Origin: Psychrobacillus sp. INOP01
GTDB taxonomy: Bacteria; Bacillota; Bacilli; Bacillales_A; Planococcaceae
Assembly: GCF_018140925.1 (NCBI RefSeq)
Contig: NZ_CP073315.1
Span: 3,224,001-3,288,000 of the forward strand
Direction of reading: 5' to 3'
Length of the DNA stretch: 64,000 nt
In this document: positions 23,550-62,455 of the stretch, piece by piece
Position numbering within the stretch: position 1 is the stretch's first letter
Layout: every line of letters begins with the position of its first letter
Position numbers and translations under genes: made by a program
The notes under the pieces: generated by a model
Database searches by the model: none
What the model saw: the letters and a program-made list of their open reading frames with translations, nothing else
Told to the model about the DNA's origin: nothing

Positions 23550-23642
23550 TATACTTAATGAAGCGTGACATTTACTTGCGCTCATCGAGTTTTTACTTGC
23601 TCTTAAAGACTATTTACTCGATAATTGGGGGAATTTATTCAT
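23550..23642 (+). repeat. 21-bp phased array, word TTTACTTGC
   Basis: The word starts at 23550 (TATACTTA), 23571 (TTTACTTGC), 23592 (TTTACTTGC), 23613 (TTTACTCG) and 23634 (TTTATTC). All four steps are exactly 21 bp, while the 12 bases between words are unrelated. It sits between the two D repeats in a convergent spacer. Confidence 0.65.
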
Positions 23643-37333: not shown

Positions 37334-37364
37334 TTTGGAAAAATAATGCCATAAAGAGGTAATG

Positions 37365-37529
37365 TTGTGCAAACGACTACTAATGTAGCGAGAAACCACA
37401 GGGAAGTTGCGTAAACCCCTCCGAACGTTGCGCGTCCGAAAAACATTGCGCATATCGAATTGACTGTTGCGCAAAAGTTCCCTAATGTTGCGAGAAACTC
37501 CACCAAAGTTGCGCAACCAAAAACGTCAC
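37365..37529 (+). repeat. 21-bp phased array, word TTGCG(CAA)
   Basis: Eight units start at 37365, 37386, 37407, 37428, 37446, 37467, 37488 and 37509; steps are 21, 21, 21, 18, 21, 21 and 21 bp. Core TTGCG (variants TTGTG, TAGCG) is often extended to the palindrome TTGCGCAA. Bases between cores vary. It fills the spacer between the degU terminator and the convergent broken NERD gene. Some units (AAAAACA then TTGCG-ATA) recur in the array at 61374. Confidence 0.75.
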
Positions 37530-42580: not shown

Positions 42581-42606
42581 CTTTATCTAAACCAATCCTA
42601 ACTGCA

Positions 42607-42732
42607 ACATAAAAGAACTTAACTACCACATAAACACACCAAATCAACACATAAACTTACCTAACTACCACATAAGGAACAATGACTACCACATAAATCC
42701 GCATATTCACCACATAACCTTCCATTAACTCC
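42607..42732 (+). repeat. perfect 21-bp phased array, word ACCACATAA
   Basis: ACATAA starts at 42607, 42628, 42649, 42670, 42691 and 42712: five consecutive steps of exactly 21 bp. The word extends left to about YHACC-ACATAA; the other 10 bases of each unit are not conserved. It lies between the yvyF terminator and the flgM promoter. Confidence 0.8.
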
Positions 42733-55951: not shown

Positions 55952-57640
55952 ATGAAGTGGACTATTGCTAAGAAAATGTGGCTTGGTTTTGTTGCTATTT
56001 TAGTATTATTAATTGCCGTATCGATTTTATCGGTCATGACTTTAATCGATAATAGTGAGAAATATCAATTTTTGTTAGACGATCGAGCTGTTAAAGTGAA
56101 TCTTGTAAAGGATATTGAGATATCTCAAAAAGATACAGCTAACGCATTAATGGATTATTTACTATTTAATACAGATGCAGCAAGGAAAAGTGTGGAGGAA
56201 AATCAGCAAATTACAAATGAGTTAACTGCTGAATTGCGCAATAAATTGTTTTCACCAGAGACGTTAGAAATGATCACGGAATTAGAAAAGAAAAATAATA
56301 TGTTTGCTTCTATTAATGCAAACGCGATCAAGGCGAAAATAGATGGTGATACTTCAGCTGTCAATAAATTTACAGCATCAGCGAAAACAACGAATACTGC
56401 TGCGCTAAAAATACTAGAAGAGATTGAACAGTTTTTACAAGCCGATATGGACACAACAAGAGATGAGCTTTCAAGTTATGAGGTTTTTGCAAGAATATTT
56501 GTCAGCTCTCTAGCTATATTAGGAGTTATAATAGGTGTTCTTTTATCATATTTCATCAGTAGAAGCATCTCAGCACCAGTAAAACGTGTTACCGCAGGCC
56601 TTACAGAAATTGCAACTGGAAACTTAACTGTAGAGCCTATAGTAATTAAAAATAAAGATGAAGTAGGCGAAATGGCAACAGCATTTAATACGATGTCTAA
56701 AGACCTGCGTGGTATAGTTTCGGGGGTTCGAGATTCTTCTATGCAGCTCGCTGCTAATGCAGAGGAACTTTCGGCAAGCTCAGAAGAAAGTTTAGCGTCC
56801 ACACAGATGGTTGCGAAATCTGCGGAAGCTCAAATGGTATCGAGTGAACAGCAAGTGCAGCATATGGATTCATCGGTCCAGTCATTGACAGAGCTATCGC
56901 AAGGCATCGGTCAAATTTCTGTCAGCAATGAAGAAATGCTACAGGCTGCAACAGATGTACAAAAACTAGTCCACACAGGCTCTAATGTTGTATCAGATGT
57001 TGCTAAGCAGATGGATACAATTCATACAACGTTTAATGACACGACAATTATTATGAAAAATATGGAGAAGCATTCCAATGATATTCAAACAGTTACTGCT
57101 TTAATAACAGATATATCCGAACAGACCAATTTATTAGCTTTAAATGCAGCCATCGAAGCGGCGAGGGCTGGTGAGTATGGCAAGGGCTTTGCAGTTGTAG
57201 CGGATGAGGTCCGTAAACTTGCAGAGCAATCTAAGAATTCTGCAACAGAAATAGCCTCTATGGTTCAACTAATTCAAAGTGCTTCAGGAGATGCAGTTCA
57301 TGCTATTACAGATGGAGGCGAGAAAGTAGAAGCCGGTATCGCAAAAACAAAGGAATCTTTAACAGTATTCCAAGGCATAGAAGAAGCAGTTGGAGAGGTT
57401 GGTTTCAAAGTGGAATCGGTTTCGGCAGCTATTGAACAAATTCAGGCAATGGCGGAGTCTGTTTCACAAGGCGCGATAGAAGTTCAAAGACTCGCAACAC
57501 TGGCAGCAGATGGTGCTAATGACACAAGTGCTGCAACGGAGCAGCAAATTGCTGCAAATGAAGAAATATCGTCCAATGCGCAGGCACTAGCAGATCTTGC
57601 AGAAGCGTTACAAAATAATGTTAGTCACTTTAAAATATAG
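55952..57640 (+). CDS. methyl-accepting chemotaxis protein (1)
   Basis: 562 residues. TM1 about 9-31, helical extracellular sensor domain (32-185), TM2 about 186-208, HAMP (about 209-262; [20 protein letters not shown]) and the MCP signalling hairpin with tip [20 protein letters not shown]. Ligand unknown; the sensor is of four-helix type. Glu/Gln-Ser repeats ([21 protein letters not shown]) are likely methylation sites. First of three tandem paralogues. The start ATG has AGGGGGAAT upstream. Confidence 0.93.
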
Positions 57641-57648
57641 TTAAATCT

Positions 57649-57685
57649 GTATATCCTATGTCGTTTTATATGGCATAGGATATTT
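57649..57685 (+). terminator. rho-independent terminator
   Basis: ATATCCTATG and CATAGGATATTTT form a 10-bp stem over TCGTTTTATATGG. Confidence 0.75.
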
Positions 57686-57795
57686 TGCTGGAATAATCTA
57701 AATTTTATATGTCCAAATACCCTTAACTTATGTATAATGATATAGTTACATTAGTATTATATGAAAATTTGCGGGATAGGAAAAAGGTGATATAT

Positions 57796-59478
57796 ATGAA
57801 ATTGACGATTTCAAAGAAAATGTGGTTTGGTTTTAGTGCAATTCTACTATTACTAGTAATAACTAGTGTTCTTACTCAAAGTGGAACAAATAAATTAACG
57901 GACAGATATAAGGACATATTGGATAATGATATAACTAAAATTAATCTAGTAGAAGAAATTATAGTGATTCAAAAAGATATGGCAACTGCAGTATTAGAGT
58001 TTGTTATGTTTGGTAAGAGAGATGCTGTGGATAAGTTTGATGCTGAAATAGAGAAAGGCTCAGTTGCTGCAAGAGCTTTAATCGAAAAAGCTACAGATGC
58101 AGAATCTGCTAAGTTGATGAAAGATCTTCAAACGGAAACAGTGAAGTTATTTGAAAGCAACAATAAGATTATTGAGTTAAAATCGGCAAATAAACCATTT
58201 GAACAATATGCAGCAGATTCTTCAGAGATTAATGCTAATGTACTTGGTATATTAGATGAAATAAAAAAAATTCAAGAAGAAAATATGGCAGATACAAGAG
58301 CAGAGTTAGAAGAATTTGAAAATAGAACAGCGATAGCATTAATTATTCTAACTATATTAGCAATTATTATTGGTATTTTTATTTCTTATTTTATTGGGAA
58401 ATCGATTTCTAAACCAATTCAAAAGGTTACAAATGGACTGGAAGAAATTGCAAAGGGTAACTTAGCAGTTGAGCCGATCATTATTAAAAATAGAGATGAA
58501 GTCGGTGTAATGGCGACGACGTTTAACAAAATGTCGAATGATTTACAGCAAATTGTATCCAGTGTTCGTGATTCTTCTATGCAATTAGCAGCAAATGCGG
58601 AAGAACTATCTGCAAGCTCAGAAGAAAGTCTTGCATCCTCTCAAATGGTAGCGAAGTCTGCGGAAGAGCAGATGATTGCAAGTGAAGAACAAGTGAAACA
58701 TATGGATTCATCCATGCATTCAATGAAAGGCTTACAACAAGGTGTATTAGAAATTGCTTCAAGTAACGATGAGATGCTACAAGCAACGGCTAGCGTGAAA
58801 ATACTTGTAACAAAAGGTTCCTCGGTCGTTTCTGAAGTGGCTGACCAAATGGAAACAATTCATACAACATTTACAGAAACAACGGAAATTATGAAAAACA
58901 TGGCTAAACACTCGGACGAAATTCAAAACATTACGTCCCTTATTACTGATATTTCTGAGCAAACGAATTTACTTGCATTAAATGCTGCAATTGAAGCTGC
59001 TCGTGCGGGAGAATACGGTAAAGGATTTGCCGTAGTGGCAGAGGAAGTACGTAAACTGGCGGAGCAATCGAAGAATTCTGCCTCTGAAATCGAGTCAATG
59101 GTTCAATTAATCCAATCTGCCTCTGGATCCGCAGTTAAAGCTATATCAACTGGTGGAGATAAGGTAGAGCAGGGTCTTGCAAAAACGACGGAATCTCTTA
59201 ATGTATTTAATGAAATAGAAACTAGTGTAGAAGATGTAGTTCAAAAAGTAGAATTAGTATCATCTGAAATTGGACAAATTCAAGAAATGGCTCAATCTGT
59301 TACAGAGAGTGCCGGGAAAGTACAAACAATTGCAGCACATACAGCGGATGGTGCAAGTGATACAAGTGCTGCAACTGAACAACAATTAGCTGCAAACGAA
59401 GAAATTTCATCCAATGCACAATCTCTAGCAGATTTAGCAGAGAAACTACAAAATAAAGTAAGTCATTTTAACTTATAA
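57796..59478 (+). CDS. methyl-accepting chemotaxis protein (2)
   Basis: 560 residues from ATG 57796 (AAAAAGGTGAT upstream; the ATG at 57730 only adds 22 non-conserved residues). Same architecture as its neighbours: TM1 about 8-28, a helical sensor (29-180) that differs strongly, TM2 about 182-203, HAMP and a nearly identical signalling domain. The sensor is rich in acidic residues. A sigma-A-like -10 TATAAT lies at about 57734. It has its own terminator. Confidence 0.93.
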
Positions 59479-59485
59479 ATTACAG

Positions 59486-59522
59486 TGACTCTAAATCACA
59501 AGCTGGATTTAGGGTCTTTTAT
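59486..59522 (+). terminator. rho-independent terminator
   Basis: GACTCTAAATC and GATTTAGGGTC form the stem, followed by TTTTATT. Confidence 0.75.
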
Positions 59523-59616
59523 TGCCTAATAATTACAATATTTCGAAAATAAAAATAGTGAACTTTCAGCTTGTATAATTATATTTACGTAGCAACTAGT
59601 GGAAAAGGGGATAATA

Positions 59617-61299
59617 ATGAAACTATCAATTTCTAAGAAATTATGGGGTGGATTTTCAGCAGTACTTATTTTATTAATAATTGCGAGTGTCATGTCTATG
59701 TGGACAACATATGATGTGTCGAATAGATATGATTCATTAATCGATGAGGAAATGGAACGCGTATCACTTGTCGAGAAAGTGGAAGTAATTCAAAAGCAAA
59801 TGTCGACTTCTGTGCTAGAGTTTTTAATGTTCAATAAACTATCGTCTGTAGAGAAACTAGAAGACAATTATAATCAGGTAATGGAGATTACAACATCTCT
59901 AGCTAGTAGTCTTAACGATTCTGCTTCAATAGAGTTAGTAGAAAAACTACAGGAGCAATCCAAACAACTTTTTGAAGCAAACAATCAAATGATTGAATTA
60001 AAAAAGGTGGACGGTATGTACTCAAAGTTCGCAGCTCAGTCCACTCAGCTTAACCTGGGGATTAGTGATATATTAGTGGAACTAAAAACTGCTGAACAAA
60101 ATGAAGTTGATCAAACAAAAGACGAATTAATTACATATGTAAAAACCGCTAATATTGTCACATTAATATTAACGATTCTTAGTGTTGTAGTAGGAGTCCT
60201 TGTATCTCACTTCATAAGTAGAAGTATAGCTAGACCTATTAAGAAAGTAACAAATGGTCTTGCAGAAATTGCAGGTGGTAATTTAACGATAGAACCGATT
60301 GTTATTAAGAATAAAGATGAAGTTGGCGATATGGCATCAACATTCAACAAAATGTCGAATGATTTACAACGAATCGTGTCTGGTGTCCGCGATTCATCGA
60401 TGCAGCTAGCAGCAAATGCAGAAGAACTTTCAGCAAGCTCTGAAGAAAGCCTTGCTTCCTCTCAGATGGTCGCAAAATCTGCAGAAGCTCAAATGGTAGC
60501 AAGTGAAGAACAAGTGGGACAAATGAATGCCTCTATGGAATCTATGACAGGCTTACAAAAAGGAGTCTCACAAATTGCTTCTAGTAATGGTGAAATGTTA
60601 AAAGCTACTGATGGTGTGCGATCACTTGTTACACAAGGATCCTCCGTCGTAACGAATGTAGCTAGTCAAATGGATACCATTCATGCAACTTTCAATGAAA
60701 CAACAGAAATCATGAAAAACATGGCGAAGCATTCCAATGAAATCCAAAATATCACGTCTCTGATTACAGACATTTCCGATCAAACGAATCTGCTTGCATT
60801 AAATGCAGCAATTGAAGCAGCACGCGCTGGGGAATACGGAAAAGGCTTTGCAGTAGTTGCAGAAGAAGTGCGAAAACTAGCAGAGCAATCAAAAAACTCA
60901 GCTTCCGAAATCGCATCAATGGTACAGCTGATCCAAGCAGCATCCAGTTCCGCAGTTAAAGCTATTACTTCAGGTGGAGATAAAGTAGAAGAAGGTCTGG
61001 CAAAAACAACTGAATCTTTAAATGTCTTCCATCAAATTGAAACAAGCGTAGACGATGTCGTACAAAAAGTAGAATCTGTCACAACCGCAATAAGTCAGAT
61101 CCAAGAAATGGCTAGTTCGGTAACAGAAAGTGTACAACAAGTCCAAACACTGGCAACACATGCTGCAGACGGCGCAAGCGACACAAGCGCAGCAACTGAA
61201 CAACAACTAGCAGCCAATGAAGAAATCTCATCCAACGCCCAGTCTCTAGCTGATTTAGCCGAGAAACTGCAGAACGAAGTAAGTCATTTTAAACTTTAA
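59617..61299 (+). CDS. methyl-accepting chemotaxis protein (3)
   Basis: 560 residues from ATG 59617 (AAAAGGGG upstream; GTG 59599 less likely). TM1 about 8-29, sensor 30-183, TM2 about 184-205, HAMP, signalling domain. It is closest to receptor 2: both have VLEFxMFxK in the first sensor helix and ITSLITDIS in the signalling region. The three genes look like successive tandem duplications with a free-evolving sensor. Followed by a terminator. Confidence 0.93.
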
Positions 61300-61303
61300 G
61301 AGA

Positions 61304-61334
61304 TACGACTCCTATTTGATAGGAGTCGTTTTTT
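61304..61334 (+). terminator. rho-independent terminator
   Basis: ACGACTCCTA and TAGGAGTCGTTTTTT form a 10-bp perfect stem over TTTGA. Confidence 0.88.
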
Positions 61335-61373: not shown

Positions 61374-61676
61374 TTGCGCAAAAGGGTCACGATGTTGTGA
61401 GAATGGCATGGAATGTTGCGCAAACACAAAAAACATTGCGTATACCGCATTAAAAGTTGCGTAAAACGAGAAAGTTGCGCAAAAGGGTCACGATGTTGTG
61501 AGAACAGATCGTAATGTTACGTAAACAAGAAAAACATTGCGTATACGGCATTAAAAGTTGCGTAAAACGAGAAAGTTGCGCAAAAAGGTCACGATGTTGT
61601 GAGAACAGATCGTAATGTTGCGCAAACACGAAAAACATTGCGTATAACGTAGCAAACGTTGCGCAAAATTTTTTCC
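61374..61676 (+). repeat. 15-unit 21-bp phased array with 101-bp super-repeat, word TTGCG(CAA)
   Basis: Unit starts: 61374, 61395, 61416, 61436, 61457, 61475, 61496, 61517, 61537, 61558, 61576, 61597, 61618, 61638, 61659. Steps repeat as 21, 21, 20, 21, 18 (sum 101). Each unit begins TTGYG or TTACG; within one 101-bp block the five units differ, but block 1, 2 and 3 correspond unit by unit. So an already diverse five-unit array was itself duplicated. No protein-coding signal on either strand. Confidence 0.85.
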
Positions 61677-61893
61677 TCAAATTATCCCAAGACACAACCA
61701 TTTAAGCCATGAAAAGTGTCTACCACAATACATGAAAAATACCTTATTCTATTTTAGGGAACACCTTACTTATTATAAAATGAAACTAGGGAGTGCCCTT
61801 ATTTTTGCTTGAAATTATCATTTAAGATTCTAGAACTCGTCACAAAGTTTTCGATGAGAATCAAGTATACTTGCAGTAGGGAGTTGTTTAGAA

Positions 61894-62325
61894 ATGTATA
61901 CATTCATTATTTTCATACATGTGATTAGTGCAGTATTATCAATTGGACCATTTTTTGTTCTATTTCCTTTATTAAATAGGATGAAAGATAAAAATAAAGA
62001 AATGATAGATACATCACTAGAAGTGTTTCAAGCAGCAATTCGACTTGTCAAACACGCAGGTCATGTACTTGTTGGCTCGGGGATTCTTCTTGTATGGCAG
62101 GGAAATTGGCCATGGACAACCTCGTGGGTGATTATGACGATTGTAGTGATGGCGAGTTCTATTGTGTTTCTAGCAAGAGCATTTAAACCAAATATACGGG
62201 AATTCCAAGCAGGATCGATTGATCTAGTTACACTCATAAAAAAATTAAAGTCTGCCGTGTGGAAATATATTATATTATTACTAATCATGCTTTGGTTCAT
62301 GGTTGCAAAACCTAATTTGTGGTAA
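61894..62325 (+). CDS. DUF2269-type integral membrane protein
   Basis: 143 residues with four membrane segments (about 2-24, 52-70, 76-98, 118-138). FIIFIHVISAVLSIGPFFVL at the N-terminus with a conserved histidine, and HAGHVLVGSGILLVWQGNWP, resemble DUF2269/CopD-like small membrane proteins. Function unknown. GTAGGGAG lies before the ATG. Monocistronic. Confidence 0.75.
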   Translation: MYTFIIFIHVISAVLSIGPFFVLFPLLNRMKDKNKEMIDTSLEVFQAAIRLVKHAGHVLVGSGILLVWQGNWPWTTSWVIMTIVVMASSIVFLARAFKPNIREFQAGSIDLVTLIKKLKSAVWKYIILLLIMLWFMVAKPNLW

Positions 62326-62329
62326 TAGA

Positions 62330-62362
62330 TACCCCTTTCTCTTAGTTGAGAATGGGGTTTTA
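62330..62362 (+). terminator. rho-independent terminator
   Basis: ACCCCTTTCTC and GAGAATGGGGTTTT form the stem with one mismatch. Confidence 0.75.
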
Positions 62363-62371
62363 CATTTCAAT

Positions 62372-62455
62372 TTGCAATTCTAGCCGAGTAACTTGCGATT
62401 CGTGAAATCAGATTTGCGATTTGCCCCAAACAAATTGCGATTCCCCGTTCAGGGA
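62372..62455 (+). repeat. 21-bp phased array, word TTGCGATT
   Basis: TTGCAATT at 62372 and TTGCGATT at 62393, 62414 and 62435: three exact 21-bp steps. At the next step (62456) stands TACATAA, close to the word of the array at 42607. It lies directly after the DUF2269 terminator. Confidence 0.7.

What the first reader, a model, noticed from the sequence alone, without database searches (positions are those of the whole stretch)
61374..61676. 15-unit array of TTGCG words phased at about two DNA turns, with a 101-bp super-repeat
Seen directly: unit starts step 21, 21, 20, 21, 18 and this pattern repeats almost three times. Only the 5-8 bp word (ending as the palindrome TTGCGCAA in about half the units) is shared by all units; the rest differs unit to unit but matches block to block. 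21 bp is two helical turns, so the words fall mostly on one DNA face, as expected for cooperative binding of a protein. The 20-bp steps break codon phase, which argues against a decayed repeat protein. I know no described repeat class like this. Function (nucleoid anchoring, transcription insulation, a selfish array) is open.
Basis: partly seen in the sequence, partly recalled or inferred. Interest (0 to 1): 0.85.

Follow-up and report, generated by a model that had tools for sequence, protein, structure and literature searches.

The report
Word arrays spaced two DNA turns
Behind many genes of Psychrobacillus bacteria sit rows of a short DNA word repeated every two turns of the double helix; the word differs from place to place and species to species while the spacing does not, which points to an undescribed kind of protein-bound DNA element at the ends of genes.

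Summary
The array is real and not unique. Fifteen words start at 61374-61659 with steps 21,21,20,21,18, repeated. A word-blind scan of 464 kb of this genome (Psychrobacillus) and 400 kb of its nearest relative finds such non-coding arrays almost only at lag 20-22 bp. One genome uses at least six different words (GTTGCGCAAA, CTTGCGATTC, GCAAGTAAAC, CCACATAAAC, TACGAGAGAG, CGACCGATTC), all at the same spacing. Words come and go between species; the spacing stays. Arrays sit just behind intrinsic terminators, favour convergent over divergent gaps (21:4 against 144:141) and mostly read in the sense of the upstream gene. Besides the two-turn word there is a stronger GC/AT alternation once per turn, at 10.1-10.3 bp in every array of 250 bp or more from the two sampled congeners; the 18-19 bp steps keep this pitch. 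This argues for double-stranded DNA held on one face of a protein surface, not for RNA, coding or guide arrays. Best guess: an end-of-operon boundary or supercoil-handling element. The binding factor is unknown; DNA gyrase is the strongest named rival. No published description was found in the library held.

The parts
61374..61668 (+). The array: 15 words (GTTGCGNNAA family) in three 5-word blocks of 101 bp (61374-61474, 61475-61575, 61576-61668)
   Evidence: best one-turn GC period 10.14 bp, power 17.6
61305..61334 (+). Intrinsic terminator of the upstream methyl-accepting chemotaxis gene, between its stop codon and the array
   Evidence: Stem ACGACTCCTA/TAGGAGTCGT then T6, read from sequence; terminators lie between gene and array in 47 of 58 sense arrays
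59599..61299 (+). Upstream gene (methyl-accepting chemotaxis protein, by sequence likeness), whose 3' end the array follows
61894..62325 (+). Downstream 143-aa membrane-protein gene; orthologue used to compare both spacers across 16 congeners
62331..62361 (+). Intrinsic terminator behind the 143-aa gene, before the next array
   Evidence: read from sequence
62374..62442 (+). Second array, word TTGCGATT at 62393, 62414 and 62435, plus a degenerate copy at 62374
37364..37517 (+). Array of the GTTGCGCAAA family in a convergent gap (6 or more words)
42588..42719 (+). Array of the CCACATAAA family behind a + strand gene
23571..23618 (-). Weak array of the GCAAGTAAA family (reads TTTACTTGC on +), convergent gap

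Best explanation
A non-coding element of double-stranded DNA at the ends of operons. Shown: a polar word of about 10 bp every two turns; a GC/AT alternation every single turn at 10.1-10.3 bp; position behind terminators and in convergent gaps; words diverging more slowly than spacers. Inferred (about 0.75): the DNA lies along or around one protein face, contacted specifically at the word on every second turn and by shape or bendability on the turn between. Inferred (about 0.5): the words are read by dedicated proteins binding head to tail, with several specificities per genome that turn over between species. Inferred (about 0.35): the complex acts as an end-of-operon boundary, stopping read-through that escapes the terminator and/or holding or relaxing the supercoils that transcription pushes ahead of it, chiefly in the origin-proximal half of this chromosome.
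For: Word-blind lag spectrum: 16-17 non-coding arrays at 20-22 bp, none at 14-19 or 23-38; in relative G014 38-41 at 20-22 and 0-1 at nearly all other lags below the harmonic. Six words, one spacing. Steps 21 (341), 19 (47), 18 (20), 20 (16), 23 (9), 22 (1); best common period over long distances 10.2 bp. GC power at 10.2 bp 8.6, against 2.95 at 20.4, 2.25 at 6.8 and 1.05 in ordinary gaps; spacers with words masked 3.28 against 1.00. All 15 arrays of 250 bp or more from G000 and G014 give 10.10-10.30 bp. Convergent:divergent 21:4 against 144:141, p=0.001; terminator within 110 bp of the stop 57/81 against 305/731, p=9e-7; origin half 19 arrays in 50 unbiased tiles, terminus half 3 in 42. Sense 39, antisense 10 in same-direction gaps. 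Words differ at 15.0% of sites between relatives, spacers at 24.5%, p=8e-7. The same gap keeps an array in most of 16 congeners.
Against: No binding protein was identified: genes beside the largest arrays are ordinary housekeeping genes and no striking paralogous DNA-binding family stood out in half of the genome. Word constraint is moderate, and only GC-versus-AT changing substitutions are significantly reduced (10.3% against 19.4%, p=4e-9); same-class changes are not (4.0% against 5.6%, p=0.12), so letter-specific reading is not proved by divergence alone. In G014 one word family (GCAAGTA) shows no clear origin bias by my reading of its positions. No expression or binding data.
Confidence: 0.42

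Rival explanations
1. Strong DNA gyrase sites, the Bacillales counterpart of BIMEs: the arrays are ideal wrapping DNA for the GyrA C-terminal domains and recruit gyrase behind operons, where transcription piles up positive supercoils. Words need only keep GC and AT in phase.
For: E. coli gyrase motif: about 130 bp with periodic GC flanks; gyrase accumulates downstream of transcribed units and shows an ori-ter gradient (PMC6379681). B. anthracis gyrase shows 10-11 bp periodic GC preference (PMC12324340). Matches one-turn GC phasing, 3' and convergent placement, origin bias, many words with one spacing, and constraint mainly on GC-versus-AT class.
Against: Arrays run at 10.1-10.3 bp, E. coli gyrase motif at 10.75 bp; a period below 10.5 is what left-handed (nucleosome-like) wrapping gives, above 10.5 right-handed (general knowledge). 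Gyrase is symmetric and predicts no sense bias (39:10). It does not explain why distant loci share exactly the same 10-bp word with unrelated spacers.
Confidence: 0.25
2. Chromosome-architecture sites: arrays anchor or position a nucleoid or condensin-related complex over the origin-proximal half, and sit behind genes only because that space is free.
For: Origin-half enrichment in this genome; about one array per 10 kb in the sampled part of G014.
Against: Strong link to terminators and sense orientation; origin bias not evident for the GCAAGTA word in G014.
Confidence: 0.13
3. Neutral or selfish minisatellites that grow by unequal exchange in space that tolerates them.
For: Copy number varies (15 words here, about 30 or more in G014 at the same place); tandem blocks show unequal exchange; location where insertion does least harm.
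Against: Identical spacing for six unrelated words, pitch held at 10.2 bp, slower word divergence, one-turn GC phasing inside variable spacers. Neutral minisatellites would vary in unit length.
Confidence: 0.13
4. RNA element in read-through 3' tails: the words are bound as RNA.
For: Sense bias.
Against: Arrays lie beyond the terminator in 47 of 58 cases; no consistent RNA fold (mean z between -1.4 and +1.0 by family); no Rfam match; helical pitch has no meaning in single strands.
Confidence: 0.04
5. Guide-RNA array (CRISPR or TIGR-like) or decayed coding repeat.
For: Constant word plus variable spacer; unit close to seven codons.
Against: No Nop-domain protein in the genome; many arrays behind housekeeping genes; spacers align with those of the relative and diverge like neutral DNA; steps of 18-20 and blocks of 82, 101 and 103 bp break any reading frame.
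Confidence: 0.03

Closest known systems
REP / BIME elements (enterobacteria, pseudomonads; RAYT-associated)
   Same: Many copies, intergenic, behind coding regions, between same-direction or convergent genes; BIME-2 bound by gyrase (PMC3733652; PMC6379681)
   Different: REPs are 20-40 bp palindromes of fixed sequence; here five of six words are not palindromic, the sequence is free and the spacing fixed
Strong gyrase sites (Mu SGS, Topo-Seq motif)
   Same: GC/AT alternation once per turn; downstream of transcription units; ori-ter gradient
   Different: 10.75 bp against 10.2 bp; no word, no polarity and no arrays of hundreds of bp in the gyrase motif
Plasmid iterons (general knowledge)
   Same: Direct repeats at about two turns, bound side by side by an initiator
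   Different: One site per replicon next to its rep gene; here many chromosomal loci, several words, no common neighbour gene
Nucleosome-positioning DNA (eukaryotes and archaea; general knowledge)
   Same: About 10.2 bp AT/GC alternation of DNA wrapped on protein
   Different: No sequence word every second turn; no histone identified here

Membership tests
REP/BIME | Palindromic, stem-forming unit | tested here: not met
   Only GTTGCGCAAA is palindromic among six words; fold z-scores near zero for most of the rest
REP/BIME | Located at 3' ends and in convergent gaps, rare in divergent gaps | tested here: met
REP/BIME | Associated RAYT (REP-associated Y1 transposase) gene | not tested
   Only the neighbours of the largest arrays were looked at, which are housekeeping genes
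Strong gyrase site | Periodic GC content of 10.75 bp as in the E. coli motif | tested here: not met
   10.10-10.30 bp in 15/15 arrays of 250 bp or more from G000 and G014; published value; the period of Bacillales gyrase is given only as 10-11 bp
Strong gyrase site | Bound and cleaved by gyrase | not testable with these tools
   needs Topo-Seq or in vitro cleavage
Plasmid iterons | Adjacent replication initiator gene | tested here: not met
   Flanks of the largest arrays are housekeeping genes
TIGR-Tas guide arrays | Nop-domain Tas protein in the genome | tested here: not met
   PF01798: no match in G000; control archaea ring
Rfam RNA families | Match to a known RNA family | tested here: not met
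   Only a sub-threshold chance hit
Minisatellite / VNTR | Whole-unit similarity between copies | tested here: not met
   Spacer identity between units about 0.3-0.5 in typical Psychrobacillus arrays, against 0.6-1.0 in most non-Bacillales 21-bp repeats
Decayed coding repeat | Frame-preserving steps | tested here: not met
   Steps 18-20 and 23; blocks 82, 101, 103 bp

The most novel reading that the evidence does not exclude
A bacterial boundary chromatin: several word-reading proteins per genome polymerise head to tail on DNA wrapped at a nucleosome-like 10.2 bp pitch behind operons, forming sequence-addressed, evolving end-of-operon insulators. The class is defined by its spacing, not by its sequence.
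Probability: 0.2. Interest if true: 0.95.

Novelty: categorically new. Interest (0 to 1): 0.82.

Why it matters
Repeat classes in bacteria are recognised by shared sequence. Here sequence is interchangeable and geometry is conserved, so sequence-based repeat searches would list unrelated tandem repeats and miss the class. The arrays are abundant (about one per 10 kb in the sampled part of the nearest relative), occur in all 19 genomes of the genus examined and in other Planococcaceae and Bacillaceae, and mark operon ends. If protein-bound, they open a direct test of how bacteria insulate neighbouring transcription units and manage transcription-driven supercoiling, and of how several DNA-binding specificities turn over in concert with their sites.

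Tried and rejected
RNA structure: no consistent signal. Intrinsic curvature (wedge model from memory): clearly raised for the CCACATAAA and CGACCGATTC families only, so not the common property. Cognate gene beside the largest arrays: none. Paralogous DNA-binding family in 2,174 sampled ORFs: nothing decisive. Guide arrays, Rfam, plasmid homologues: none. Viral contigs with the TTGCG pattern: 106 of 123 places lie in ORFs and 11 more are near-identical repeats. A first word-versus-spacer rate (12.9% against 25.6%) was biased by picking words on one genome and was redone with words picked on either genome (15.0% against 24.5%). The idea that the GC power is only a harmonic of 21-bp repeats was checked: non-Bacillales 21-bp repeats have about equal power at 10.5 and 7 bp, whereas arrays here have about four times more at 10.2 than at 6.8. 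Literature searches found no description; most subscription papers are not in that library. E. coli K-12 50 kb control: no chains at 14-40 bp.

Full report
WHAT IS THERE. The window lies at 3,224,001-3,288,000 of a closed 4.30 Mb chromosome. A contig of the congener G001 has the same length (245,292) as one of Psychrobacillus antarcticus Val9, and both carry an array at the same place, so the genus is Psychrobacillus. The reported array is confirmed base by base: 15 words from 61374 to 61659 with steps 21,21,20,21,18, repeated almost three times. Eleven words are exactly TTGCG; six read TTGCGCAA. It follows a methyl-accepting chemotaxis gene and its intrinsic terminator (61305-61334) and precedes a 143-aa gene, which is itself followed by a terminator and a second array with another word, TTGCGATT (62374-62442).

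CHANCE. In 100 dinucleotide shuffles of the window the longest chain of one 5-mer at 18-22 bp steps was 2-4 words; the window has 6. Five places have a 6-mer three or more times at lag 20-22; shuffles have none or one.

IT IS A GENOME-WIDE CLASS. A scan that does not know the word (any 6-mer three or more times at a constant lag, lags 8-60) was run on sampled stretches. In a first sample of 464 kb, partly hand-picked, non-coding arrays occur 16-17 times at lag 20-22, never at 14-19 or 23-38, and again at the harmonic 41-43. In 400 kb of the nearest congener G014 there are 38-41 at 20-22, against 0 or 1 at nearly all other lags below the harmonic. A wider sample of 2.06 Mb of this genome was then searched at this lag. 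The arrays use at least six words: GTTGCGCAAA, CTTGCGATTC, GCAAGTAAAC, CCACATAAAC, TACGAGAGAG, CGACCGATTC. Spacers between words are largely unrelated between loci.

BREADTH. The pattern TTGCG x3 at 20-21 bp is in 19 of 19 genomes of the genus with almost no hits for the reversed control, in 80 of 200 family genomes, in some of which the reversed control word is itself abundant at the same spacing, and at chance level across 398 genomes of the phylum. Named hits with variable spacers include Planococcus, Ureibacillus, Neobacillus and Lentibacillus. Outside Bacillales most hits are coding or near-identical tandem repeats.

WORDS TURN OVER, SPACING STAYS. Around the 143-aa gene in 16 congeners, by my reading, the upstream gap holds an array in 13 (12 of the GTTGCG family, one switched to TTGCGATT) and the downstream gap in about 10 (mostly TTGCGATT-like, three with TGGTTGCT). 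Unit counts run from 3 to about 20 and spacers are not alignable between distant members. GCAAGTA arrays give 85 matches in G014 and none in G003, G009, G012 and G015.

CONSTRAINT. Between G000 and G014, columns that are word in either genome differ at 15.0% and spacer columns at 24.5% (p=8e-7). The reduction is clear for GC-to-AT class changes (10.3% against 19.4%, p=4e-9) but not significant for changes within a class (4.0% against 5.6%, p=0.12). Units located by phase alone still keep the exact letters (for example G16 A3 T2 at the first base of GCAAGTA), though common descent within arrays could cause that.

PLACE. In 73 arrays of G000 and G014 the word reads in the sense of the upstream gene in 39 same-direction gaps and against it in 10; 19 are convergent and 5 divergent; 47 of 58 sense arrays have a terminator between stop codon and array, at a median distance of 92 bp from the stop. 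Counting gaps, array-bearing ones are convergent:divergent 21:4, other gaps 144:141 (p=0.0013); a terminator lies within 110 bp of the stop codon in 57/81 against 305/731 (p=9e-7). In tiles not chosen for hits, the origin half has 19 arrays in 50 tiles and the terminus half 3 in 42. The origin was placed by GC skew at about 2.14 Mb. By my reading, GCAAGTA positions in G014 show no clear bias, so this may not be general.

HELICAL GEOMETRY. Steps over six families are 21 (341), 19 (47), 18 (20), 20 (16), 23 (9) and 22 (1); distances pile up at 82, 102-103 and 123-124, and the best common period is 10.2 bp. The base composition alternates between GC-rich and AT-rich once per turn, more strongly than with the two-turn word: power 8.6 at 10.2 bp, 2.95 at 20.4, 2.25 at 6.8, and 1.05 in ordinary gaps; with words masked the spacers alone give 3.28 against 1.00. 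All fifteen arrays of 250 bp or more from G000 and G014 have a best period of 10.10-10.30 bp; Ureibacillus, P. antarcticus and P. lasiicapitis give 10.2 as well, whereas Lentibacillus, Cerasibacillus and Gracilibacillus give 10.5. One short step per four or five words brings the blocks (82, 101-103 bp) to whole turns at this pitch. I infer that the array works as double-stranded DNA with one face on protein. A pitch below 10.5 bp is what nucleosome-like, left-handed wrapping shows (general knowledge); the E. coli gyrase motif, a right-handed wrap, has 10.75 bp (PMC6379681).

MECHANISM. Position behind terminators, the sense bias, polar words and helical pitch together suggest a polar protein assembly that marks the end of an operon and limits read-through or handles the supercoils ahead of RNA polymerase. 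Gyrase is the best named rival: it explains GC phasing, placement, origin bias and free choice of word, but not the 10.2-bp pitch, the polarity, or the sharing of exact words by distant loci. I could not identify a binding protein. Guide RNA, RNA structure, decayed coding sequence and simple minisatellite readings fit poorly.

NOVELTY. I found no description in the papers held, but that library lacks most subscription journals. The nearest known elements, REP/BIME, strong gyrase sites and iterons, each fail at least one defining feature tested here. I rate the class as categorically new because its defining property is spacing with interchangeable words; the function remains a hypothesis.

Noticed in passing
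window 55952-61299: Three methyl-accepting chemotaxis genes in tandem with nearly identical C-terminal halves, a likely recent duplication.
   Followed up: no
window 61450-61701 (-): An 83-codon ORF runs through the array on the minus strand; it is probably spurious, the kind of ORF that automatic annotation would call a hypothetical protein.
   Followed up: partly
L145 1930-2330; L155 900-1480: A different, GC-rich dispersed intergenic repeat (such as GCTCTATGCGGACGCTTTCCGCGGGG, twice in L155) interrupts or replaces word arrays in these congeners.
   Followed up: no
G000 chromosome, tiles at 0-0.9 and 3.32-4.3 Mb: The terminus-proximal half of this chromosome is almost free of arrays.
   Followed up: partly
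L297 5984-6057; L302 6073-6146: Two viral-database contigs with about 50% GC share an intergenic TTGCGGGTTATTT-like array with variable spacers, in hosts unlikely to be Bacillales.
   Followed up: no
G192, G224, G225 (genus g3 of the same family): Here the reversed control word (GCGTT) itself gives 300-500 matches at the same spacing, showing a different dominant word in these species.
   Followed up: partly
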